From: Solirubrobacterales bacterium | GTDB lineage: Bacteria > Actinomycetota > Thermoleophilia > Solirubrobacterales > Solirubrobacteraceae | NCBI GenBank assembly: GCA_019240115.1 | Contig: JAFAYV010000042.1 | Location: 1 to 56,428 of the forward strand | DNA: 56,428 nt | Direction of reading: 5' to 3' | Shown: in pieces, positions 1,966 through 54,125 of the stretch | Position numbering within the stretch: position 1 is the stretch's first letter | Layout of the letters: every line of letters starts with the position of its first letter | Notes under the pieces: generated by a model | Seen by the model: only the letters and a program-made list of their open reading frames with translations | Told to the model about the DNA's origin: nothing | Database searches by the model: none | Translations under genes and position numbers: made by a program

Positions 1966-2687
1966 CGCGGCGCCTGCTCGTCATCGGCGCCCACTCGGCC
2001 GACTTCGTCTGGCGCGCCAGCGGGGCGCTCGCGGCGTGCACTGCGGGCGGCGGGACCGGGCGGGTGATCGCGCTGTCCTACGGCGAGCGCGGGGAGTCGG
2101 GCGAGCTGTGGAAGGACTCGGATCCCGCCCACCCCCAGACGGTCGACAACGTCAAGCGGGTGCGCCACGGCGAGGCGCAGCGGGCGGCGGCGGCGCTCGG
2201 CGCCGACTTCGTTGCGATGGACCTCGGCGACTACCCGCTGCAGATCGACCGCGACGCGCTCATCGCGATCGCCGACCAGATCCGCGAGTTCGCGCCCGAT
2301 GTCCTGGTCACCCACACCGACGCCGATGCGTTCAACCCCGATCACCCGGTCGCCCACGCCGCCGTGCAGCGCGCGCGCAGCCTCGCCGCCGGCGCCGGCA
2401 TCCCGAGCGCGTTTGGCACCGTCCGACCTCCCGAGCTGTTCCTGTTCGAGCCCCATCAGCCGGAGCTGTGCAACTTCACCCCGACGACGTTCGTCGACAT
2501 CACGCCGGTGCTCGAGGCCAAGGTGGCGGCGATGGCCGAGATGCGCGCCCAGGCGTATCTGCAGACCTACTACCGCGAGCGTGCCGACCACCGCGGCAAT
2601 CACGCGCGCCGCGCATCGGGCAATCAGGACATCCGCCAGGCGGAGGCATTCCAGCGGGTGATCCCCGAGGTGAGGAGCGCCCTGTGA
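1962..2687 (+). CDS. galB: PIG-L-fold hydratase, GalB-like (4-oxalomesaconate hydratase type)
   Basis: A 241-residue protein. The start is GTG at 1962 (1959 is also GTG), overlapping the upstream stop by 4 bases. The N-terminal motif is GAHSADFVWRASG in place of the HPDDE of PIG-L deacetylases. Together with YGERGESGELW and FEPHQPE it matches what I recall of Pseudomonas putida GalB, the Zn-dependent 4-oxalomesaconate hydratase of gallate breakdown. Hydration would give 4-carboxy-4-hydroxy-2-oxoadipate, the substrate of the aldolase encoded immediately downstream. The GTGA junction with the next gene implies coupled translation. The exact substrate is uncertain because the dioxygenase here is not a gallate-dioxygenase (LigAB-type) protein. 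Confidence 0.75.
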   Translation: MTRRLLVIGAHSADFVWRASGALAACTAGGGTGRVIALSYGERGESGELWKDSDPAHPQTVDNVKRVRHGEAQRAAAALGADFVAMDLGDYPLQIDRDALIAIADQIREFAPDVLVTHTDADAFNPDHPVAHAAVQRARSLAAGAGIPSAFGTVRPPELFLFEPHQPELCNFTPTTFVDITPVLEAKVAAMAEMRAQAYLQTYYRERADHRGNHARRASGNQDIRQAEAFQRVIPEVRSAL

Positions 2688-2775
2688 GCGAGCCTGACCG
2701 AGCCGGCGCGGCTGGGATCGGCGACCCTGTGAGCGAGCCGCTGACCGAGCTGGCGCGGCTGGGATCGGCGACCGT
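2684..2775 (+). repeat. 45/47-bp tandem duplication of a gene start
   Basis: Copy 1 (2684-2728) and copy 2 (2729-2775) both begin GTGAGCGAGCC and share TGACCGAGC..GGCGCGGCTGGGATCGGCGACC. Copy 1 lacks a GC dinucleotide after GTGAGCGAGCC. The 45-base spacing keeps both GTG codons in the same frame, so the aldolase gains a 15-residue N-terminal extension. Confidence 0.9.
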
Positions 2776-3355
2776 GTACGAGGCCGGCGGTCGCGGCGGC
2801 TTCGTCGACGCCGACCTGATCCAGGTCGTACCCGGATCGCGGGTGGCCGGGCCGGCGCGCACCGTCGCCTGCGGCCAGGACGACAACCTTATGGTCCACG
2901 CCGCGATGGCCGCGGTCGCCCCCGGGGAGGTCCTCGTGATGACGATGCCCGAGCCGCGGCCGATCGCGCTCGTCGGCGACCTGCTCGCCACCCAGGCGCG
3001 CGCCCAGGGGGCGGCCGGCATCCTCGTCGACGCCGCGGTGCGCGACGTCGAGGAGCTCGTCGAGCTCGGGCTGCCGATCTGGGCGCGCTGGGTCCGGGTC
3101 CACGGCGCGGGCAAGGAGCTCCCCGGGAGCATCGGCGAACCGGTCGTCGTCGGGGGGGCGACGATCGGCGCCGGGGACATCCTGGTCATGGACCGCGACG
3201 GCGTGGCCGTGATCGACGCCGATTGCGTCGAGGAGGTGCTGGCGGCATCGCTCGCGCGCGAGGCGCGCGAGCACGCCAAGCGACTCAAGCTGCAGGCGGG
3301 CGAGCTCTCCTACGACCTCGACGGGCTGCGCGAGCGCGTGGAGGGCGCGTCGTGA
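2684..3355 (+). CDS. RraA-like pyruvate aldolase (4-carboxy-4-hydroxy-2-oxoadipate/HMG aldolase family)
   Basis: The RraA-like core shows LGSATVYEAGGRGG, GDLLATQARAQGAAG and the catalytic D-x-x-x-R-D segment DAAVRD. This is the class II pyruvate aldolase signature seen in GalC, LigK and ProA. The product would be pyruvate plus a keto acid such as oxaloacetate. I chose the GTG at 2684 because AGGAG precedes it at good spacing and it overlaps the hydratase stop as GTGA. A second in-frame GTG at 2729 gives 208 residues and matches the family N-terminus better. The two starts lie in two copies of a tandem duplication. The gene ends in a GTGA overlap with the dioxygenase gene. Confidence 0.85.
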   Translation: MSEPDRAGAAGIGDPVSEPLTELARLGSATVYEAGGRGGFVDADLIQVVPGSRVAGPARTVACGQDDNLMVHAAMAAVAPGEVLVMTMPEPRPIALVGDLLATQARAQGAAGILVDAAVRDVEELVELGLPIWARWVRVHGAGKELPGSIGEPVVVGGATIGAGDILVMDRDGVAVIDADCVEEVLAASLAREAREHAKRLKLQAGELSYDLDGLRERVEGAS

Positions 3356-14001: not shown

Positions 14002-14061
14002 CCGATCGCGCGTGGCTGACGCTCCGGCTCTCCGATCGCGCGTGGCTGACGCGCCGGCGCG
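14002..14061 (+). repeat. 30-bp tandem repeat, two copies, upstream of the transporter gene
   Basis: CCGATCGCGCGTGGCTGACGC occurs at 14002-14022 and again at 14032-14052, a 30-base period. It sits just before the transporter start. A GTG inside copy 1 (14012) is in frame with the transporter and would add a duplicated VADAP segment, so the repeat also blurs the start. Confidence 0.85.
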
Positions 14062-44206: not shown

Positions 44207-44845
44207 ATGCAACCGCCCCGGTCGTCTCCCGCGACGTTTGACATCGCCCGGGCCGTGATTCCCCCGCGCGTGATCGACGACGCGCTGCGCATCCTGCATC
44301 TGGACCTGCTGGAGCGCGGCGCGACCGCCGACGAGCTAGGCCGCTGGCTGTGGGGTTGCCATTGGTTTCCCCACCTCAACGACGACCCGCGGATCGTCGC
44401 CCTGGCCGATGCGCTGCCCGAGTCGTGGCGCAGCGGCGAGCGCTGCAACACGCAGATCCTGCTGCAGTTCCCCCACACCGGGCCCGAGCCGGAGATCACC
44501 TTCCACCTCGACCGTGAGCCCGACTGGGCGGACGGCCGTCGCTACCTGCGCATCGTCGGGATCGCGCTGAGCGCGTGGTCGGCGGCCAACGGCGGCCTGC
44601 TCGTCCGCCCCGACGATCAGGTCGTCGCGGTGCAGCTTGCGGCCGGCGACGCGGTCCGGATGGACCCCGGGCTCCTGCACTCGAGCGCCATCAACCGAAC
44701 CGGCGGGATTCGCTACGCGGTGTACTTTCGCTGGCTGCAGGCCGCTGCGCCGCGCGATGGCGATCAGCGACCGCCGGCCGCGGCAAGCTCAGCGTCGCGA
44801 ATGCAGCGCGCCTCGTCGGCCGCCGGATCCGGCTCGCAGACATAG
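44207..44845 (+). CDS. Putative Fe(II)/2-oxoglutarate-dependent oxygenase (phytanoyl-CoA dioxygenase-like)
   Basis: 212 residues from ATG 44207 (GTG 44204 adjacent). The facial triad fits His100-x-Asp102 in ITFHLDREPDW and His158 in DPGLLHSSAINR. Arg169 in GGIRYAVYFRW is the 2-oxoglutarate anchor. Jelly-roll spacing is right for PhyH proteins. The last 30 residues (GDQRPPAAASSASRMQ onward) are low-complexity and overlap the 3' end of the convergent methyltransferase by 82 bases. The conserved domain ends before that overlap. The substrate may relate to the glycan cluster beside it. Confidence 0.65.
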   Translation: MQPPRSSPATFDIARAVIPPRVIDDALRILHLDLLERGATADELGRWLWGCHWFPHLNDDPRIVALADALPESWRSGERCNTQILLQFPHTGPEPEITFHLDREPDWADGRRYLRIVGIALSAWSAANGGLLVRPDDQVVAVQLAAGDAVRMDPGLLHSSAINRTGGIRYAVYFRWLQAAAPRDGDQRPPAAASSASRMQRASSAAGSGSQT

Positions 44846-45552
44846 ATCTCGTGGCCGGGCGTGGCGCGGATTCGCATCCCGGCGCAGCGCAGCATCGCCC
44901 GCACGCAGCCGTCGTCGGGAATCCACCAGTTCGTGGGGTCGCCCGCCAGGGAGTGCTCGACGAACGCCGCGCGCGGCCAGCCGGGCGCGGCCAGCCGCTC
45001 ACGCCGGCCGAACGGGAGATCGCGCGGCGTATCGAGGACGTAGGGGACCGGCATCGTCAGCGTCTGCACGACGAGCGTGCCCGTCGTCATCCCGGCGACG
45101 AGATCGAGCGCGAGCTGGGGATAGCGCAGGTGGTAGAGCACGCCGAGGAAGAGGACCAGGTCGAAGCGGCGGGTCAGCCGCGCGAGGTCGTAGACCTGCA
45201 TCGTCCGGAACTCGACGCGCCCCTCCGGGTCCAGCCAGCGAGCGGCCCAGCGCGCCTGGCCGAGGTAGTGCTCGTCGGTGTCCAGCGCGAGCACGTGCGC
45301 CCCCCGGCGGGCGAGCTCAAAGCTGTAGAAGCCGGCGTTGCAGCCGACGTCCAGCGCTTGCACGTCGCGCAGGTCGGCGGGCAGGATGGCGCCGATCTGC
45401 TGCCACTTGTAGTCCGGAAAGTCCCCGAGTGGATGATCGGGCGCCGTGCTCTCCCCGCCGGGAAGATGGAGGTTGTGAAACCACGGCGCCAGCGCGTTGA
45501 TCTCTCGGCGGCGCTCGCCGCATCCCGGCGCGCCGTGCGACTGCAGCGTCAC
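44764..45552 (-). CDS. SAM-dependent methyltransferase, TIGR04290-like
   Basis: 262 residues from GTG 45552. Motif I is QALDVGCNAGFYSFELARRGAHVLALD, with motif II/post-I HYLGQARWAARWL and motif IV FDLVLFLGVLYHLRYPQLAL. The flanking WFHNLHLPGGEST and FGRRERLAAPGW, VEHSLAGDPTNWWIPDD match a TIGR04290-type methyltransferase as I recall it, often found beside glycosyltransferases. It is the last gene of the nine-gene cluster and overlaps the upstream glycosyltransferase stop by 4 bases. Confidence 0.85.
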   Translation of the reverse strand: MTLQSHGAPGCGERRREINALAPWFHNLHLPGGESTAPDHPLGDFPDYKWQQIGAILPADLRDVQALDVGCNAGFYSFELARRGAHVLALDTDEHYLGQARWAARWLDPEGRVEFRTMQVYDLARLTRRFDLVLFLGVLYHLRYPQLALDLVAGMTTGTLVVQTLTMPVPYVLDTPRDLPFGRRERLAAPGWPRAAFVEHSLAGDPTNWWIPDDGCVRAMLRCAGMRIRATPGHEIYVCEPDPAADEARCIRDAELAAAGGR

Positions 45553-46622
45553 GCCGGCACCGCCCCGCGGGCACGCGCGACCTCACGCTCGAGCATCTCG
45601 ACGCGACGCTCCGCGGTGTGCTCGGCCAGGACGCGCGCCCGCGCGCGGCGGCCGATATCTCGGCGCCGGGCCTCGTCGGGGTCGCGGAGAAGCTCGATCA
45701 CCTCGTCGGTGCTCCGCGCGACGAGGATCTCCTCGCCGACCGAGAACACCTCGTCGAGACCAGGCCAGTCGTCGGAGATGATCGGCACCCCCACGGCAGC
45801 GGCCTCGAACAGGCGCACGCTCGGCGACCAGCCGGCCGCCCGCATCCGGGCACGGGTGAGGTTGAGCGTGAATCGCTGGCTCGCGTAGAAGCGCGGGTGG
45901 TCGGGGGGAGCGACATGCTCGGTGCGCGTGAGGTTGGCCGGCCACGCGATCTGCACCGGATAGCTCGGCCCGGCCAGCGCGAACCGCCCCTCTGGCAGCC
46001 GGCGCGCGACCTCGAGCAGCAGCGCCTCGACGCCGGCCTGGCGATCCTCGCTGTAGGTCCCGAGATATCCCAGCTCGAACGTGAGCGGCGCCTGGACCGG
46101 CGCGTAGGCGGCGGGGTCAACGAGGCAGTAGAAGGCGAGCGGTCGCCGCGCGCCGAACCGCTGCGCGAGCACGTCGAGCGTCGGTCCGCCCGTGAACGAG
46201 AGGTAGAGGTCGAACTTCGGGACCTGGTCGGCGTCGAGGTACTCGCGGTCGCCGCAGGCAAGCTTGGCCAGCGTCACGGGCGTGTCGATGTCGTAGAACG
46301 CCACGCAGCCGCCGGCGGCCGCAAGCAGCCAGTCGGCGACGGCCACGCCTTCGGGCACGTAGGAGCCGAGCAGGACGAGATCGGCGTGCGCCACCGCGGA
46401 GCCGGCTCGATCGCGCAGCTCGCCCAGGTCCCGGTACAGGCACAGCTCCCCGCCGGGCGGGCGCTGCAGATCGCGGTGCGCGGCGTACCACGGGACGTCG
46501 CGTTCACAGAAGAGCACGGTGTGGCCGCGCGCCGCCAGCTCGCCGACGAGCGCTCGGTAGTTGGTGGCATGGCCGTTGCCCCACGATGACGTGATCGACA
46601 GGCCGACGAACACGACCTTCAC
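45549..46622 (-). CDS. Glycosyltransferase (CgeB-like, GT-B fold)
   Basis: 357 residues from GTG 46622. The N-terminal Rossmann domain begins KVVFVGLSITSSWGNGHATNYRALVGEL. SDEVFSVGEEILV-type elements appear in the C-terminal nucleotide-sugar domain: FTLNLTRARMRAAGWSPSVR, LFEAAAVGVPIISDDW and GLDEVFSVGEEILVA. This is the CgeB-like pattern. It is similar to the next gene upstream (GNGHA/WNGACT at the N-terminus, S-P-S/T-R-x-FEAA in the C-half), so the two arose by duplication or share ancestry. The start lies at the end of a 35-base tandem repeat. Confidence 0.85.
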   Translation of the reverse strand: MKVVFVGLSITSSWGNGHATNYRALVGELAARGHTVLFCERDVPWYAAHRDLQRPPGGELCLYRDLGELRDRAGSAVAHADLVLLGSYVPEGVAVADWLLAAAGGCVAFYDIDTPVTLAKLACGDREYLDADQVPKFDLYLSFTGGPTLDVLAQRFGARRPLAFYCLVDPAAYAPVQAPLTFELGYLGTYSEDRQAGVEALLLEVARRLPEGRFALAGPSYPVQIAWPANLTRTEHVAPPDHPRFYASQRFTLNLTRARMRAAGWSPSVRLFEAAAVGVPIISDDWPGLDEVFSVGEEILVARSTDEVIELLRDPDEARRRDIGRRARARVLAEHTAERRVEMLEREVARARGAVPA

Positions 46623-46718
46623 GAGACCGCGACCCCCTGCTCGGCGAGAACCCTCACGAGATCGCAACCTCCTGCTCGGCGAGAACCCTCACGAGACCGC
46701 AACCTCCTGCTCGGCGAG
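46623..46718 (-). repeat. 35-bp tandem repeat at the junction of two glycosyltransferase genes, with overlapping mini-ORFs
   Basis: Three copies of the end of the upstream gene, read CTCGCCGAGCAGG..GTTGCG.TCTCGTGA, recur with an exact 35-base period. Stop codons end at 46689, 46654 and 46619. GTG codons at 46692, 46657 and 46622 each overlap the preceding TGA as GTGA. The two extra units encode VRVLAEQEVAIS and VRVLAEQGVAVS. The last GTG starts the downstream glycosyltransferase. Confidence 0.9.
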
Positions 46719-47783
46719 GATCGCCTCCACCTGCGCGGCGCGATGGGCGTAGGTGTGCGCGCCCAGGATGCGCCGGCGAGCCGCGGCGCCGATCTCGGCG
46801 GCCCGGCGGGGATCGAGCTCGGCGACCAGCCCCGCCACCTCCCGGCCGTCGCGAGCGACCAGGACCTCCTCGTCGGCGGCAAGGAACTGGTCGATCCCCT
46901 CCCAGGCGTCGGTGATGAGGCAGGCTCCGGCGCCGGCGGCCTCGAACACGCGGGTCGGAGGCGAGAAGCCGTTGGCCGCCATGCTGTCGCGAGTGACGTT
47001 GAGGACGGCTCGCGCGCTGCAGTTGACGGCATTGTGGTCGGCGGGCGAGACGTGTCCGAGGTAACGCAGGTTCGGCGATCTCACCCGGTCGCCCCAGCCG
47101 TTGCCGCCGAGCACGAAGCGCGAAGCCGGCGCCCGCGCCACCGCGCCGAAGAACAGGTCGTCGACCCGACGTTCGCGATCGGGCAGCCGGTTGCCGAGGA
47201 AGACCAGATCGCACGCCAGGTCTCGGCGCCCGGGCACCGGGTGATGGGTGGCGGGATCCAGCGCGTTGTAGACCGCGTCGCAGCGTCGCGCGCCGAGCGC
47301 GCGGTAGCGGTCGACCACCGGGCGGCCGCCCCCGTAGGTGAGCACGAGGTCGTAGTCGGCGATCCGCGACCGCAGCCCGGCCAGCTCCCCGCTCTCCATC
47401 GCGGTCAGCGTCGCCGGCGCGTCGACGTCCCAGAAGATCCTCATGGCGGGACCGTCCAGGTCGGCCACGGCGGCCTCGAGCACGTCGTCGAACACGCCGA
47501 CGCCGCTGCACTTGACGATCACGTCCGCCCCCCGCGCCCGCGCCACGACCGATCGCACCGCGGCGGCGTCGGTCGGCTCATAGACGACGATGCGCGCCCA
47601 GGCCGGATCGTCGATGTCGCGATGCTCCTGACGCTCGTACGCGCGGGGCTCATAGAAGGTGATCCGATGGCCGCGCGCGTGCAGCGCCCGGACGAGCCCG
47701 CGGTAGTACGTGCAGGCGCCGTTCCAGTAGGCCGAGATCAGGCTCGAGCCGAAGAAGGCGAAACGACGCGAGCGGACGGTCAT
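46689..47783 (-). CDS. Glycosyltransferase (CgeB-like, GT-B fold)
   Basis: 364 residues from ATG 47783. The N-terminal half has FAFFGSSLISAYWNGACTYYRGLVRAL and RIFWDVDAPATLTAMESGE. The C-terminal half has CDLVFLGNRLPDRERRVDDLF, LNVTRDSMAANGFSPPTRVFEAAGAGACLITDAW and GIDQFLAADEEVLVA, the donor-binding region of CgeB-type transferases. It starts in an ATGA overlap with the upstream transferase. Its terminal codons are part of the 35-base repeat. Donor and acceptor are unknown. Confidence 0.87.
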   Translation of the reverse strand: MTVRSRRFAFFGSSLISAYWNGACTYYRGLVRALHARGHRITFYEPRAYERQEHRDIDDPAWARIVVYEPTDAAAVRSVVARARGADVIVKCSGVGVFDDVLEAAVADLDGPAMRIFWDVDAPATLTAMESGELAGLRSRIADYDLVLTYGGGRPVVDRYRALGARRCDAVYNALDPATHHPVPGRRDLACDLVFLGNRLPDRERRVDDLFFGAVARAPASRFVLGGNGWGDRVRSPNLRYLGHVSPADHNAVNCSARAVLNVTRDSMAANGFSPPTRVFEAAGAGACLITDAWEGIDQFLAADEEVLVARDGREVAGLVAELDPRRAAEIGAAARRRILGAHTYAHRAAQVEAILAEQEVAVS

Positions 47784-48895
47784 CGCGGCATCGAGGATGC
47801 CCCGACCGGCGCCAGCCGCTCATGGATGGACAGCAGCTCGTCGACCCGGGCCGCGCACGTGTGCCGGCGCAGCACGGTGGCCCGGCCGTGGCGAGCCATC
47901 TCCGCCGCCGCCTGCGGATCGGCCAGCAGCGCGTGGATGGCCGTCGTCATCTCGCGCCCGTCACGCGCGCTCAGGAAGTCCTCCCCGGGCGTGAACAACC
48001 CCTCGACGTCGTCCCAGGGTGAGCACACGAGCGGGATCGCGCACGCCAGCGCCTCGAACACCCGGATGGTCGGGATGCCGGGAAGCGCGCGGACGTAGGG
48101 GCCGCGGGGGACGTGGACGGTGAGCCGGTGGCGCGCGAACACCTCGGGCACGCGGTGGTTGGCGATCCACCCGCGATAGCGCAGGCCCGAGCGCCAGATC
48201 CGCCACCGTGCCCGCCGTGGATAGCGCACGCCGTGGATCGCGCCTCGCAGAGCCAGCCGCCGGGCGGGGTGCAGCAGGAACTCGTGCAGCTCCGCGGTGC
48301 GCTCGTCGTCGCCCCAGTTGCCGACCCACACGAGATCGGCGGGATCGGCGGCGGGCGGGTGGGGGGCGAAGACGCGCGTGTCGGCGGCCTCGTGCCACGT
48401 GAAGGCGCGGCTCGCCCAGCCCCGGTCGACGTAGATCTGCCGGATGACCTCTCCGAAGGCGAGCACCCCGTCATAGCCCGCGAGGTCGAAGCGCGCCAGC
48501 TCGTCGGGGGCCGTCGCCGCGCGATGGTGGGTGTCGTGGAAGAGCAGCGTGTAGCGACCGCCGGCGCCGCGATGCGTCCCGATCCGCTTGACGAGCTCCG
48601 GATCGTTCCATTCGTGCACGAGCACGAGGTCGGCGTGATCGAGGGCGCGCTCGAGGTCGAGCCGCTCCGGCTCGTACTGGTGGCTGACGAGGTCCGGGAA
48701 GCGCTCCGCGAAGGCCCGGATCGCCCGCTCGCCCTCGAGCCGCTCGAGGTTCGCGCGGCTCCAGCCGCCGCGTGGCTCATAGACGGTGACGTCGTGACCA
48801 CGGTCCTGCAGCTCGCTGACGATCCCGCGCAGGAAGTGCGCGTTGCCGTGGTTCCAGTCCGAGACCAGCGAGTGGCAGAAGACGACGACTCTCAT
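47780..48895 (-). CDS. Glycosyltransferase (CgeB-like, GT-B fold)
   Basis: 371 residues from ATG 48895. MRVVVFCHSLVSDWNHGNAHFLRGIVSEL parallels the N-termini of the two following transferases. The middle has DLVLVHEWNDPELVKRIG and LLFHDTHHRAATAPDE, and the donor half has LVWVGNWGDDERTAELHEFL, IPTIRVFEALACAIPLVCSPW and FTPGEDFLSARDG. Both ends overlap neighbours by 4 bases. With three related transferases in a row, the cluster probably builds an oligosaccharide by successive additions. Confidence 0.87.
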   Translation of the reverse strand: MRVVVFCHSLVSDWNHGNAHFLRGIVSELQDRGHDVTVYEPRGGWSRANLERLEGERAIRAFAERFPDLVSHQYEPERLDLERALDHADLVLVHEWNDPELVKRIGTHRGAGGRYTLLFHDTHHRAATAPDELARFDLAGYDGVLAFGEVIRQIYVDRGWASRAFTWHEAADTRVFAPHPPAADPADLVWVGNWGDDERTAELHEFLLHPARRLALRGAIHGVRYPRRARWRIWRSGLRYRGWIANHRVPEVFARHRLTVHVPRGPYVRALPGIPTIRVFEALACAIPLVCSPWDDVEGLFTPGEDFLSARDGREMTTAIHALLADPQAAAEMARHGRATVLRRHTCAARVDELLSIHERLAPVGASSMPR

Positions 48896-49950
48896 CGCGC
48901 CACCAGCTCGTAGAGCTCCCGATAGCGATCGGCCATCCGCCCGGAGCCGTAGCGCCGCGACCGGCGCTGCGCTCGCTCCCCGAGGCGTGCGGTCTGCGCC
49001 GGATCGGCCAGCAGCCGCGCGAGCACCGCGGCCGCGGTCGCGGCATCGCCCGGAGCGACGTAGGTTGCCGCGTCGTCCCACACCTCCCGCAGCGACGGGA
49101 TGTCGCCGAGCACCAGCGCGCAGCGATCGCGCGCCGCCTCGAGGATCGAGAGGCCGAACGGCTCGTAGCGCGCCGGAGCCGCGAACACGGCGGCGCGCCG
49201 TCGCTCGGCGGCCAGCTCCTCGGCGTCCAGCATCCCGAGGCGGGTCAGGTGCGCGTCGGCGCGCCGGTCACCCGCATCGCCGGCGACCCGCACGGTGCCG
49301 GGCGGCATCCGGGTCGCCACGTCGGCGAGCAGCGCGAGGTTCTTGGCCTCGTCCCAGAGGCGGCCCGCGGCGAGCACGACCGGTTGCTTCTCCGGCGCGC
49401 AGGCAACGGGGGCCGAGGTGCCGTTGTGGATGACCGCGCGATGACCACGACCCCCGCCGTGCTCGCGCGCCAGCGCGTCGAGCATGGCTCGCGTCGGCGC
49501 CACGACCGCGTCGGCGGCGTCCAGCCCGGCGCGGATCCAGGCTCGGTAGCGATCCCACTCCGCCGGCGGGGTGCGTCCGTGCACCGCCCGCCACCAGGAG
49601 TAGACGCAGGAGTGCGCCCCCACCACGACCGGCGCCCGCCACCGCGCGGCGGCGTGGCCGAAGCCGTTGAGGTGGACGACGTCGGGACGGTGCTCGCGCT
49701 CGAGCTCGAGCAGCCAGCGCTGCGCGACCTCGAGATCGTCCCACGGGTCGGACATCCATTCGAGCTTGCCCGCGCTCTCGTACCATTGCGCGGGCGCGGC
49801 CTCCGCGATGCGCGCCCGCTGCGCCGGGCGCGCGGCGGCGCCGAAGGTGACCAGGACGACCTCGACCGCGCGCTCGCGCAGGCCGGCGATCAGCTCGGCT
49901 GCGTGGGTGAACACTCCGCCGACGGTGTCGGCCGTCATCAGGATCCTCAT
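48892..49950 (-). CDS. GT4-family glycosyltransferase
   Basis: 352 residues from ATG 49950. The N-terminus MRILMTADTVGGVFTHAAELIAGL and DVVHLNGFGHAAARWRAPVVVGAHSC form the acceptor half. The donor half has VVLAAGRLWDEAKNLALLADVATRM and the GT4 E-x7-E region EPFGLSILEAARDRCALVLGDIPSLREVW. Unlike the three CgeB-like partners it is a standard GT4 retaining enzyme. ATGA overlaps at both ends. Confidence 0.92.
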   Translation of the reverse strand: MRILMTADTVGGVFTHAAELIAGLRERAVEVVLVTFGAAARPAQRARIAEAAPAQWYESAGKLEWMSDPWDDLEVAQRWLLELEREHRPDVVHLNGFGHAAARWRAPVVVGAHSCVYSWWRAVHGRTPPAEWDRYRAWIRAGLDAADAVVAPTRAMLDALAREHGGGRGHRAVIHNGTSAPVACAPEKQPVVLAAGRLWDEAKNLALLADVATRMPPGTVRVAGDAGDRRADAHLTRLGMLDAEELAAERRRAAVFAAPARYEPFGLSILEAARDRCALVLGDIPSLREVWDDAATYVAPGDAATAAAVLARLLADPAQTARLGERAQRRSRRYGSGRMADRYRELYELVAR

Positions 49951-50990
49951 CGCGCGGCGTCGTAGATCCGGTCCAGGACGTCGGCGACGAGCTCCAGGCC
50001 GCGCGCCCGGTCGGCATCGAAGCCGGTGCCGTCCGCGACCCGAGCCGCCCATCGCGTGATCCCGCGGGCTCCCCAGTCCTCTCCCGGCGCGCTCAGGCGC
50101 TCGGTCCGGGTGCCGACCCAACGCTCGGCCACGAAGTCGTAGAACGATCCGTCGAGGTTGCCCATCGTCACCGCCCCCGTCGTGCCGTACAGCGTGCACT
50201 CAAACACGCAGTCGCGCCCGGCGGACAGAAACCAGGAGCAGGCCAGCCGCATCCGCACGCCGGCGTCGGTATCGATCTCCGCGGTGGCGAACTCCTCCAC
50301 CGCGGATCCGTCGGGGTCGACCGGCTCGCCGCCTGCGAGCACGCGCGCGCTGACGATCTCGGCGCGGGTGCTGGCGGTCAGCCACAGCCCGAGGTCGACG
50401 AGGTGCGTGCCCAGATCGACCAGGCAGCCGCCTCCGGACAACTCGCGCTGCGTAAACCACGCCTTGTCGGGGCCGTAGGCGTTGTGAAACGCGAGGTCGA
50501 CGGAGTGAACGCGTCCGATCCCGTCCCCGGCGAGCGCGAGGCGAAGGCCGCCGACGGCATCGGTGTGGCGGTAGCAGAGGTCGACGCCGAGCGGGCGGTC
50601 CGCGGCGCGCGCCGCGGCCAGCACCCGCCGGGTCTCGGCGCCCGTGCGAGCCAGCGGCTTCTGGCAGTACACCGCCGCGCCGAGGCCGAGGATCGCGATC
50701 GCCTGCTCGGCGTGCAGCGCGCTCGGGGTCGCGATGACCACCCCGTCGGGCTCGAGCGCCAGCAGCTCCTCGAGCCCGACGACGACGTCCGCCTCGGGCG
50801 CCAGCCGCGCCGCCTCGCGCCGGGCCTCGGCACCGGGATCGGCGACGCCGACGACATGCGCGGTCCCCGAGGCGATGAGCGAGGCCAAGCGGCGAGCGCC
50901 GATCCACCCGGCGCCGAGAAACGCGATGCGCGGGCGTCGTGTCGACGGCCGTGCCCGCGATCGCGCTCGCGCTCGAGCGAGCGTGCTCAC
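49947..50990 (-). CDS. Gfo/Idh/MocA-family oxidoreductase
   Basis: 347 residues from GTG 50990. The NAD(P) fold is RIAFLGAGWIGARRLASLI. The EKP-type motif appears as VYCQKPLARTGAETRRVL, with the catalytic Lys retained. HNAYGPDKAWFTQRELSGGGCLVDLGTHLVDL supplies the usual G-G-G-x-x-x-D-x-G-x-H-x-x-D active-site segment. Such enzymes oxidise or reduce sugar nucleotides or inositol. It sits between alcohol dehydrogenase and GT4 genes, so modification of a nucleotide sugar is likely. 4-base overlaps on both sides. Confidence 0.9.
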   Translation of the reverse strand: MSTLARARARSRARPSTRRPRIAFLGAGWIGARRLASLIASGTAHVVGVADPGAEARREAARLAPEADVVVGLEELLALEPDGVVIATPSALHAEQAIAILGLGAAVYCQKPLARTGAETRRVLAAARAADRPLGVDLCYRHTDAVGGLRLALAGDGIGRVHSVDLAFHNAYGPDKAWFTQRELSGGGCLVDLGTHLVDLGLWLTASTRAEIVSARVLAGGEPVDPDGSAVEEFATAEIDTDAGVRMRLACSWFLSAGRDCVFECTLYGTTGAVTMGNLDGSFYDFVAERWVGTRTERLSAPGEDWGARGITRWAARVADGTGFDADRARGLELVADVLDRIYDAAR

Positions 50991-51946
50991 ACCGTCACCA
51001 GCGCCTTGATGAAGCCGGCGGGCCGCTCGCGCATCGCCGTGAACGCCTCGCCCAACCCCGAGAGCGAGTAGCGGTCGGTGTACAGCGGACGCGGGTCCAG
51101 CCGTCCGGAGGCGATGGCGTCGACGGCCCCGCGGATGCCGTCGAGATAGACGGAGCGGTCGCGCTCGTGGGCGTTGATGATGTCAAGCCCCCGCCAGTTC
51201 CAGCTCTGCATGTCGACCGTCCGCGGCCCGTCCTGGTGATAGCCGGCGATCACCAGCCGTCCGCGGACGCGGACCAGGTCGCCCGCGAGGTCCAGCGTGT
51301 CCTGCCTGCCGGCGGCCTCGATCGCGAGATCGCAGCCCTGGCCCGCGGTGAGCTGCGCGAGGCGCTCGCGGTCCTCGGGCGCGAGCGTGATCTCGGCCCC
51401 CATCGCGGCGGCGGCGCGCCGAGCCGTCGCGCGCCGCGACACCGCGATCACCCGCGCGCCCGCAGAGGCGGCCAGCCCGATCAGAAGACAGCCGAGAAAG
51501 CCGGCGCCGATCACCGCCACGGTGTCGCGGGCTCCGACCTGCGCCCGGTGAAACGCGTTGACCGCACACCCGAGCGGCTCCCCGGGGAACGGCTGATCGT
51601 CGAGCAGTGCCGGCAGCACGACGAGACGATCCGCGTCCACCACCTCGTACTCGCTGTAGGAGTGATAGCCGAGGATGGCGACGCGGGCGCCGATCGACGG
51701 CTGCTCGACGTCGGCGCCCACGGCGTCGATGCGACCCCATCCCTCGTGACCCGGCGCGCCCGCGGGCCGCGGATAGTCAAACCAGGACCGGCCCTCCCAG
51801 ACCGGGAGGTCGGAGCCGCACACCCCGCACCCCTCGAGCGCGACGCGGACCTCGCCGCGCCCGGGCGCCGGCCGGGGAACCTGGCCGATCCGCATCTCGC
51901 CGCCGCCCACCACGACCGCCGCGCGCATCGTGCGGTCGGTCGTCAT
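50987..51946 (-). CDS. Medium-chain (zinc-type) alcohol dehydrogenase without the structural-zinc lobe
   Basis: 319 residues from ATG 51946. The catalytic zinc ligands fit Cys in EGCGVCGSDLPVWEG, His-Glu in PGHEGWGRID and a later Cys in GEPLGCAVNAF. The four-cysteine structural-zinc loop normally found after the ARVAIL strand is missing, and the protein is about 30 residues shorter than usual. The coenzyme fold is DTVAVIGAGFLGCLLIGLAA. It may oxidise a hydroxyl on a sugar nucleotide, acting before the Gfo/Idh enzyme. ATGA overlap with both neighbours. Confidence 0.88.
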   Translation of the reverse strand: MTTDRTMRAAVVVGGGEMRIGQVPRPAPGRGEVRVALEGCGVCGSDLPVWEGRSWFDYPRPAGAPGHEGWGRIDAVGADVEQPSIGARVAILGYHSYSEYEVVDADRLVVLPALLDDQPFPGEPLGCAVNAFHRAQVGARDTVAVIGAGFLGCLLIGLAASAGARVIAVSRRATARRAAAAMGAEITLAPEDRERLAQLTAGQGCDLAIEAAGRQDTLDLAGDLVRVRGRLVIAGYHQDGPRTVDMQSWNWRGLDIINAHERDRSVYLDGIRGAVDAIASGRLDPRPLYTDRYSLSGLGEAFTAMRERPAGFIKALVTV

Positions 51947-52977
51947 GAGGTGATCGCCAGCGAGCTGCGTTCGTCGATCAGCCAGGCGTGCAGGACGTCC
52001 AGCCCGATTCGCGGATCGGTTCGCGCGGTCCAGCCGGTGGCTCGCGAGAACGCCGAGGTGTCCGAGACGTAGTAGCGCTGATCGCCCGCGCGCCACGGCG
52101 CGCGAACGACGCGCGGCGGCCCGCACAGCTCGCCGATCATGTCGAGCAGCTCGAGCAGGCTGACCGCGTTCGCCGGCCCACCGCCGATGTTGAAGGCGCG
52201 GCCGCTCAGCCGACGCGAACCCTTCGCGGCGAGCACGAGCGCGTCGACCAGATCGTCGATGAACAGGACGTCCCGGACCTGCTTGCCGGATCCGTAGATC
52301 GTGATCGGCCGGTCCTGCAGCGCGCTGATGAGGAAGTGCGCGACCCACCCCTGATCCTCGGTGCCGAACTGGTGGGGGCCGTAGATGCAGCTCATGCGAA
52401 AGACGACCGTCGGCACGCCATAGCTCGACGCCCAGTCGACGACGTACTGGTCGGCCGCGCCCTTCGAGCAGCCGTACGGCGTGCAGAAGCGCAACGGTCG
52501 CGTCTCGTCGATCCCACCCGTCCTGATGTCGGGCTCCCGCGGGTCATAGCGGCGACCGCGCTCGTCGAGAGCGAGCTCGGGCAAGGCGCCGTAGACCTTG
52601 TTCGTGGAGGTGAACACGATCGACGGCGGATGCGCGCGCCCCCGGCAGGCGTCGAGCACGTTCAGCGTTCCCTGCAGGTTGACGCCCGCATCGCACAGCG
52701 GCGCGTCGAAGCTGGTCGTGACGGCGACCTGGGCCGCGAAGTGAAACACGTGGTCGATGCCGCGGATGGCGCGCGCGACGCGCGCGGGCTGGCGCACGTC
52801 GGCGATGACGACCTCGAGCGCGGACCCGTGGGTGGCCTCCAGCCAGCCGAGGTTCGCGGCGACCCCGGTCCGCGACAGATCGTCGAGGACGCGCACCCGC
52901 CATCCGTCGCGCAACAGCCGGTCGGCGGTGTTCGTGCCGACGAAGCCGGCGCCGCCCGTGATGAGCGCGGTGCTCAT
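51943..52977 (-). CDS. NAD-dependent sugar-nucleotide epimerase/dehydratase (CDP-paratose 2-epimerase-like)
   Basis: 344 residues from ATG 52977. The extended SDR fold begins TALITGGAGFVGTNTADRLL. The active site includes VFTSTNKVYGALPE and CTPYGCSKGAADQYV (Tyr-x-x-x-Lys). The STNKVYG wording is characteristic of CDP-paratose/tyvelose 2-epimerases, which invert C2 via an oxidised intermediate. FRMSCIYGPHQFGTEDQGWVAHF follows. The exact nucleotide sugar is not determined. It overlaps both neighbours by 4 bases. Confidence 0.87.
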   Translation of the reverse strand: MSTALITGGAGFVGTNTADRLLRDGWRVRVLDDLSRTGVAANLGWLEATHGSALEVVIADVRQPARVARAIRGIDHVFHFAAQVAVTTSFDAPLCDAGVNLQGTLNVLDACRGRAHPPSIVFTSTNKVYGALPELALDERGRRYDPREPDIRTGGIDETRPLRFCTPYGCSKGAADQYVVDWASSYGVPTVVFRMSCIYGPHQFGTEDQGWVAHFLISALQDRPITIYGSGKQVRDVLFIDDLVDALVLAAKGSRRLSGRAFNIGGGPANAVSLLELLDMIGELCGPPRVVRAPWRAGDQRYYVSDTSAFSRATGWTARTDPRIGLDVLHAWLIDERSSLAITS

Positions 52978-54125
52978 ATCGTCAGCCCGTGGGCCGCCAG
53001 CTCGGCGGCGGCCGCCTCGACGCGATCCTCGGACACCCGCCCCTCCAGCCACCGCGCGAGCTCCAGCATGCCCGCCTCGAGCTCGACGGCGGGCGCGTAG
53101 CCGAGCAGCCGCTGCGCGGCCCCGACGTCGGCGAAGCAGTGACGCACGTCGCCGAAGCGGTACTTGCCGGTGATCACCGGCTCGCAGCCACGGCCGTCCA
53201 GGATCGCCGCCAGCCGGCGCGCGATCTCGGCAACCGTGGTCCGCGAGCCGCTGCCGATGTTGAGCGCCTGGCCGTCAGCCCCGTCGTGCGCGATCGCCAG
53301 CGCGCAGCCATGGGCGACGTCGGCGACGCTGACGAAGTCCCGTCGCTGCTCGCCATCCTCGAAGATGAGCGGCGGCCGGCCGTTGAGCAGGCGCGCGGCG
53401 AAGATCGCCAGGACGCCGGTGTAGGGGTTCGACAGCGCCTGGTCGGGGCCGTAGACGTTGAACAGGCGCAGCGCGACGGTGGGCACGGAGTACGCGGAGC
53501 CGAACAGCAGGCACATCCGCTCCTGATCGAACTTGCCCAGCGCGTACTGCGATGCGAGCGCGGGAGGCTTCCACTCGGCCGTCGGAATCGGCTCAAGCGT
53601 CCGCCCGTCCTCGTCCTGCAGCTCCCAGCGCGCGCCCTCGAGCTGCTCCCGGGACCGCTCGGTCCCGGGGCGGACGCGGCCGCCGACATCGCGGTACAGA
53701 CCCTCGCCGTAGATGCTCATGCTCGAGGCCACGACCAGCTTGCGCGGGGGCCGCTTCATCATCGCCTGCAGCAGCACGCCCGTGCCGTGGGTGTTGGCCG
53801 ACGCGTAGTCGGCCACCTCGTACATGCTCTGGCCCACGCCGACGCGCGCCGCCAGGTGGACGACCACGTCGATTTCGCGAAGCGCCTGGTCGACGGCCTC
53901 GCGGTCGCGCACGTCGCCGACGACGAGCTCGACGTCGTCCTCGAGGTACGCCGGACGGCGACAGCCACCGTGGACCTGCTCGACGAGGCTGTCCAGCGCG
54001 CGGACAACGTTGCCGTCGCGCAGGAGGCGCCGGGCGAGATGGGAGCCGATGAAGCCGGCTCCGCCGGTGATCAAGATCCGTTCGGGCACGTCGGCTCCTG
54101 GGTCGAGGGTGAGTGCTTCAGACAC
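52974..54125 (-). CDS. NAD-dependent epimerase/dehydratase, first gene of the glycan cluster
   Basis: 383 residues from GTG 54125. The NAD fold is RILITGGAGFIGSHLARRLL, followed by VVGDVRDREAVDQAL, VVVHLAARVGVGQSMYEV, the catalytic Ser/Tyr region VASSMSIYGEG and SQYALGKFDQERM, and LRLFNVYGPDQALSNPYTGVLAIFAARLL. This is the GalE/WbpP/RmlB-like extended SDR pattern. An insertion of about 45 residues (REQLEGARWELQDEDGRTLEPIP) separates the Ser and the Tyr. It is likely the promoter-proximal gene; 136 bases separate it from the next gene upstream. Confidence 0.9.
   Translation of the reverse strand: MSEALTLDPGADVPERILITGGAGFIGSHLARRLLRDGNVVRALDSLVEQVHGGCRRPAYLEDDVELVVGDVRDREAVDQALREIDVVVHLAARVGVGQSMYEVADYASANTHGTGVLLQAMMKRPPRKLVVASSMSIYGEGLYRDVGGRVRPGTERSREQLEGARWELQDEDGRTLEPIPTAEWKPPALASQYALGKFDQERMCLLFGSAYSVPTVALRLFNVYGPDQALSNPYTGVLAIFAARLLNGRPPLIFEDGEQRRDFVSVADVAHGCALAIAHDGADGQALNIGSGSRTTVAEIARRLAAILDGRGCEPVITGKYRFGDVRHCFADVGAAQRLLGYAPAVELEAGMLELARWLEGRVSEDRVEAAAAELAAHGLTI

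What the first reader, a model, noticed from the sequence alone, without database searches (positions are those of the whole stretch)
46619..46718. Chain of overlapping 12-codon mini-ORFs created by a 35-base repeat between two glycosyltransferase genes
Because one mini-ORF of 39 bases minus a 4-base GTGA overlap equals 35, each repeat unit exactly regenerates a stop/start junction. Ribosomes ending the upstream gene could reinitiate at VRVLAEQEVAIS, then VRVLAEQGVAVS, then the next transferase. This would preserve coupling across an insertion or tune expression by copy number, like a slippage-driven phase or dose switch.
Basis: partly seen in the sequence, partly recalled or inferred. Interest (0 to 1): 0.65.

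Follow-up and report, generated by a model that had tools for sequence, protein, structure and literature searches.

The report
Junction repeats preserving gene-to-gene translational contact
Two tiny genes made by copying a 35-letter stop/start junction sit between two sugar-transferase genes so that stop and start signals always touch, and the same genome, with a few relatives, has made such bridges independently at other gene junctions, a natural experiment on how bacteria may hand ribosomes from one gene to the next.

Summary
Window 46615-46718 (minus strand) holds three copies of a 35-bp unit. The first is the end of a glycosyltransferase gene. The other two are 12-codon mini-ORFs joined by GTGA overlaps, and the last GTGA starts the next glycosyltransferase gene. 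In 18 relatives with the same gene pair the array is absent. All 18 keep stop-start contact: 14 by a 4-nt overlap, 3 by a 1-nt overlap or direct abutment, 1 by an unrelated mini-ORF bridge. The array is therefore a local tandem duplication of a conserved overlap.

It is not a one-off. In 1.28 Mb sampled from this genome, unrelated units (14, 17, 23, 35 and about 44 bp) form similar chains at other junctions, including gatA-gatB, where 20 of 29 relatives have a plain 4-nt overlap. Two more cases turned up in other Solirubrobacterales. Unit lengths at such junctions favour 3n-1 (6/8, or 7/10 by a second method; p about 0.02), the one class that leaves both proteins and the contact unchanged.

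The closest known kind is the mycobacterial MIRU, but these are not one dispersed family. Preservation of coupling is plausible. The copy-number dose or phase switch has no support.

The parts
46615..46718 (-). Tandem array, 3.0 copies of a 35-bp unit (copy 0 = 3' end of gene A; copies 1 and 2 = inserted units)
   Evidence: TRF score 180, 92% matches
46689..47783 (-). Gene A, glycosyltransferase (PF13524), 364 aa, ends ...LAEQEVAVS|GTGA
   Evidence: orthologues in 18 other genomes with gene B next to it
46654..46692 (-). Mini-ORF 1, 12 codons, VRVLAEQEVAIS; start overlaps the stop of A by GTGA (46689-46692)
46619..46657 (-). Mini-ORF 2, 12 codons, VRVLAEQGVAVS; start overlaps the stop of mini-ORF 1 (46654-46657), stop overlaps the start of B (46619-46622)
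45549..46622 (-). Gene B, glycosyltransferase (PF13524), 357 aa, GTG start VKVVFVGLS aligned with the start in relatives
46703..46708 (-). SD AGGAGG in copy 0 (for mini-ORF 1)
   Evidence: duplex with anti-SD -11.0 kcal/mol
46668..46673 (-). SD AGGAGG in copy 1 (for mini-ORF 2)
   Evidence: -11.0 kcal/mol
46633..46638 (-). SD AGGGGG in copy 2 (for gene B)
   Evidence: -10.1 kcal/mol
44764..54089 (-). Operon of eight co-directional genes; the A-B junction is the only one bridged by mini-ORFs, the others can be read as direct 4-nt overlaps

Best explanation
The array is a local tandem duplication of an ancestral 4-nt (GTGA) stop-start overlap, arisen in a lineage prone to intergenic minisatellites. 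Because the unit is 35 = 3x12-1 bp and contains the SD, each copy is a complete relay cistron (SD, GTG start, 12 codons, TGA). It leaves proteins A and B unchanged and keeps every stop in contact with the next start. Shown: the array, its absence in relatives, the conserved contact, and recurrence with unrelated units at other overlapped junctions. Inferred: terminating ribosomes reinitiate stepwise (A, mini-1, mini-2, B), so coupling survives a roughly 70-nt insertion that would otherwise break it, and duplications of other lengths are more often lost. Copy number itself probably has little or no regulatory role.
For: 18 relatives with the A-B pair lack the array and all keep contact; 14 of them by a 4-nt overlap. 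The one other separated pair (G108) is also bridged by a mini-ORF. The rest of the operon is overlapped. Unrelated arrays of the same design occur at gatA-gatB, L084, L093, L109, lexA (L136), L116, L056 in this genome and in G080 and G016; at gatA-gatB 20 of 29 relatives have the plain overlap and none the repeat. Period 2 mod 3 in 6 of 8 stop-spanning duplications at co-directional junctions (p=0.020), but 4/6/6 at convergent ends. Duplications at NTGA co-directional stops 7/274, at other co-directional stops 0/368 (p=0.0025). Strong SD before each start. Published reporters: about 20-38 nt of separation nearly abolishes reinitiation (PMC10666635).
Against: No expression data. An intact chain is close to automatic for most duplication lengths, so the case for selection rests on the length bias alone, from few arrays (p about 0.02). 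B has its own strong SD and could be initiated afresh. One NTGA array (L123, 17 bp) does not form a chain, and rph-rdgB relatives mostly have short gaps rather than overlaps.
Confidence: 0.6

Rival explanations
1. Neutral minisatellite. The lineage duplicates short segments everywhere. An insertion just downstream of A's stop is harmless because B keeps its own SD and start, and the mini-ORF chain is only a by-product of duplicating an open frame of length 3n-1.
For: Noncoding repeats are frequent in this genome (convergent gaps 26.5 per Mb, against 0 and 2.5 per Mb in the two comparison samples). Simulated 3n-1 duplications keep the chain in 99% of cases. B has a strong SD of its own.
Against: Length bias at overlapped co-directional junctions (6/8 or 7/10) but not at convergent ends; no stop-spanning duplications at 368 non-overlapped co-directional stops; contact kept in 19 of 19 A-B pairs.
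Confidence: 0.27
2. Copy-number dial. Each unit adds a strong SD and start (or a reinitiation step), so the number of units tunes B relative to A, and slippage changes it.
For: All three starts carry strong SDs. Precedent: the length of the rnc-fpg1 repeat region correlates with fpg1 mRNA in M. tuberculosis (PMC2734929).
Against: No copy-number series among relatives; copies have diverged; units do not change the frame of B; many unrelated operons carry such arrays, which suits a general mutational process better than tuned switches.
Confidence: 0.1
3. A mobile MIRU-type element inserted at the GTGA junction.
For: Same architecture as MIRUs: a short ORF coupled to the neighbouring gene with -4 spacing (PMC12548453).
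Against: The unit occurs once in the genome. Copy 0 is the native end of gene A with a length typical of relatives. Other arrays have unrelated units that match the end of their own upstream gene.
Confidence: 0.02
4. Structured RNA element or leader.
For: Repeats can pair with each other in the minimum-energy fold.
Against: Fold no more stable than shuffled sequence, z = -0.06; no Rfam match.
Confidence: 0.01

Closest known systems
Mycobacterial interspersed repetitive units (MIRUs; Supply et al. 1997, described in PMC12548453)
   Same: Short ORFs between co-directional genes with -4 stop-start spacing, so that an inserted unit leaves the neighbouring gene coupled; tandem copies occur.
   Different: MIRUs are one dispersed, apparently mobile family. 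Here each junction has its own unit, copied from the end of its upstream gene, and the unit is unique in the genome.
Termination-reinitiation at 4-nt gene overlaps (Huber et al. 2023, PMC10666635)
   Same: NTGA overlaps, SD within the end of the upstream gene, strong dependence on stop-start distance.
   Different: Here the single contact is replaced by a chain of two (elsewhere up to four or five) relay mini-ORFs.
rnc-fpg1 tandem repeat region of M. tuberculosis (PMC2734929)
   Same: Lineage-specific tandem repeats grown between two co-directional genes that lie only a few bp apart in relatives.
   Different: A longer and more complex region (279-358 bp), with an expression effect measured at mRNA level; no mini-ORF relay described in the passages read.
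Synthetic bicistronic design (short leader cistron; mentioned in PMC12548453, details from memory)
   Same: A short translated leader carrying an internal SD, whose stop overlaps the start of the gene.
   Different: Natural, inside an operon, tandem, and made by duplication.

Membership tests
MIRU | Small ORF whose ends overlap the flanking genes with -4 spacing | tested here: met
   GTGA at all three junctions
MIRU | Same repeat family dispersed at many loci, apparently mobile | tested here: not met
   One location in the genome; other junction arrays have unrelated units
MIRU | Sequence similarity to mycobacterial MIRU consensus | not testable with these tools
MIRU | Copy number polymorphic between strains | not testable with these tools
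   One genome per species; no reads or metagenome scan available
Termination-reinitiation coupled pair | 4-nt (or 1-nt) stop-start overlap | tested here: met
   Met through the chain here; 14 relatives have a direct 4-nt overlap
Termination-reinitiation coupled pair | Contact conserved across relatives | tested here: met
   19 of 19 pairs
Termination-reinitiation coupled pair | Translation of B depends on translation of A | not testable with these tools
   Needs reporters or ribosome profiling
Phase-variable repeat (contingency locus) | Unit gain or loss switches the gene on or off, for example by frameshift | tested here: not met
   B keeps its own start and SD whatever the unit number
Structured RNA element | Fold more stable than shuffled sequence, or an Rfam match | tested here: not met
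   z = -0.06; no Rfam match

The most novel reading that the evidence does not exclude
In Solirubrobacterales, overlapped gene junctions repeatedly spawn local minisatellites obeying a 3n-1 length rule. Each unit works as a relay cistron, so ribosomes pass through up to four or five successive reinitiations without losing coupling. The arrays are fossils of selection for stop-start contact, arisen independently of any mobile MIRU.
Probability: 0.4. Interest if true: 0.65.

Novelty: new variant of a known kind. Interest (0 to 1): 0.5.

Why it matters
If the relay is real, these arrays are natural mutants of the coupling distance. They show which insertions between overlapped genes evolution accepts. 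They offer ready constructs (one, two or four relay cistrons) to measure reinitiation efficiency per step and to separate reinitiation by the same ribosome from fresh initiation. They would also show that MIRU-like architecture can arise repeatedly without a mobile element.

Tried and rejected
RNA structure or known RNA family: no signal. Second genomic copy of the unit: only a 75% match over part of the query at C13, which does not look like a junction array. Mobile MIRU-like insertion: disfavoured, because the unit matches the native 3' end of gene A. 'Chain kept in all cases' as proof of selection: rejected after the simulation, since contact survives most random duplications. TRF periods of 34 (L084) and 47 (window 2680) were corrected by eye to 17 and to 45/48. 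Paper searches found no report of such arrays outside mycobacteria in the held library; subscription papers are mostly not covered. rph-rdgB: relatives mostly have short gaps, so that bridge is not evidence of conserved contact.

Full report
Observation. TRF finds 3.0 copies of a 35-bp unit at 46615-46718, score 180, the strongest tandem repeat in the window. Read on the minus strand, gene A ends in ...GTCTC|GTGA, followed by two mini-ORFs (VRVLAEQEVAIS, VRVLAEQGVAVS), each ending in GTGA, the last GTGA being the start of gene B. Copy 0 is the coding end of gene A, so two units are inserted. Copies 1 and 2 differ at three of 35 positions, so the array is not brand new, and diverged copies are hard to get by assembly error (inference). 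Each of the three GTG starts has a strong SD (-11.0, -11.0, -10.1 kcal/mol; median of 196 plain overlaps -5.55).

Surroundings. A and B are PF13524 glycosyltransferases in a run of eight co-directional genes at 44764-54089. Every other junction of that run can be read as a direct 4-nt ATGA or GTGA overlap; for one of them the gene finder preferred a later start. The genome is an unnamed 4.03-Mb assembly in 99 contigs. Relatives recovered with names are mainly Solirubrobacterales MAGs.

Relatives. A-B pairs from 18 other genomes have no array. Fourteen have the 4-nt overlap (two of them with a slightly longer B N-terminus), two have TGATG, one has TAG|ATG. One (G108, L034) has a 56-nt separation bridged by a single unrelated mini-ORF (TTGA, LTAHHGSPAAVSLGGGRSR, ATGA). 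So contact is kept in 19 of 19, including both pairs that are physically separated. The overlap is ancestral and the 35-bp units are derived.

Not a single case. I sampled 1.28 Mb of the same genome and 0.40 Mb each of two relatives and used a simple codon-score gene finder (sanity check: 123 of 135 coding repeats have period 0 mod 3). Chains of tandem mini-ORFs appear at gatA-gatB (23 bp, VSGSQVRT, VSGSQVRP; Pfam Amidase and GatB_N), between two genes for conjugation-type ATPases (17 bp, four units VRGAWR/VRGARR), at L093 (23 bp, LSSGLASG, MSSGLASG), after lexA (35 bp, one unit), at L109 (14 bp, three units, then two non-repeated mini-ORFs), at L116 (one 44-bp unit), at rph-rdgB (44/50 bp, diverged) and at L056 (17/35-bp mixture, five units by eye, one link CTGA instead of GTGA). 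The units are unrelated to each other and in the clearest cases match the end of their own upstream gene. No such chain was found in the G011 or G056 samples. Two more lie in other genomes: rdgB to a cation-efflux gene in G080 (32 bp) and a racemase gene (murI-like) to rph in G016 (32 and 65 bp). For gatA-gatB, 20 of 29 relatives have the plain 4-nt overlap and none has the repeat; the L093 pair is also a plain overlap in most relatives.

Is it more than chance? Stop-spanning duplications at co-directional junctions: 6 of 8 have period 2 mod 3 (binomial p=0.020); at convergent gene ends the split is 4/6/6. With TRF, hand-corrected, 7 of 10 at NTGA stops have period 2 mod 3, against 27 of 86 other noncoding repeats (the script tested 8 of 10, before I reclassified window 2680 as 45/48). 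Duplications occur at NTGA co-directional stops (7/274) and not at other co-directional stops (0/368; p=0.0025). A caution came from simulation: random duplications across a 4-nt overlap keep contact in 99% of cases for 3n-1, 96% for 3n (by extending B) and 9% for 3n+1 with one extra copy (93% with two). An intact chain therefore proves little; only the length bias does, and it is modest. The 3n-1 class is the one that changes neither protein nor the contact.

Mechanism. Published reporters show reinitiation nearly abolished by about 20-38 nt of separation (PMC10666635). A 70-nt insertion would thus uncouple B unless bridged. I infer that terminating ribosomes reinitiate at each GTGA in turn. 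The alternative, that B is initiated afresh from its strong SD and the array is neutral, remains open (about 27%). A dose or phase switch is not supported: unit number does not affect the frame of B, and no copy-number series is seen among relatives.

Known kinds. MIRUs of mycobacteria have the same architecture (small ORF, -4 spacing; PMC12548453) but are one dispersed family; this unit is unique in its genome. The rnc-fpg1 repeat region of M. tuberculosis is a precedent for lineage-specific junction arrays with an expression effect (PMC2734929). I rate this a new variant of a known kind: locally generated, recurrent, coupling-compatible relay arrays.

Noticed in passing
window 2680-2777 (+): A second stop-spanning duplication in the same window: units of 45/48 bp (0 mod 3) across a GTGA stop, so the next gene can be read in frame from the first junction with an N-terminal extension (VSEPDRAGAAGIGDP...).
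   Followed up: partly
G000 sampled stretches (L052-L138) and window: Repeats in convergent gaps are about ten times denser in this genome (26.5 per Mb) than in the two comparison samples (0 and 2.5 per Mb); cause unknown.
   Followed up: partly
L056:13445-13606: Five-unit relay of 17- and 35-bp units between a gene for a phosphorylase-like protein (unconfirmed) and an amidase gene, intact except for one start codon changed to CTG.
   Followed up: partly
L063:16773-16952: A 34-bp array (5.2 copies) after a GTGA stop runs to the contig end, so assemblies may break at such arrays and undercount them.
   Followed up: no
L123:12150-12262: A degenerate 17-bp array across a GTGA stop that does not form a chain to the next gene: an exception to the pattern.
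   Followed up: partly
L252 / L264 (G004), homologue of the L093 junction: A non-repeated mini-ORF (VTEPCRPARL) bridges a gap between genes that overlap directly in most relatives, like the G108 bridge at the A-B junction.
   Followed up: no
window 14002-14058 (+): A 30-bp tandem duplication (96% matches) at the end of a 497-codon ORF.
   Followed up: no
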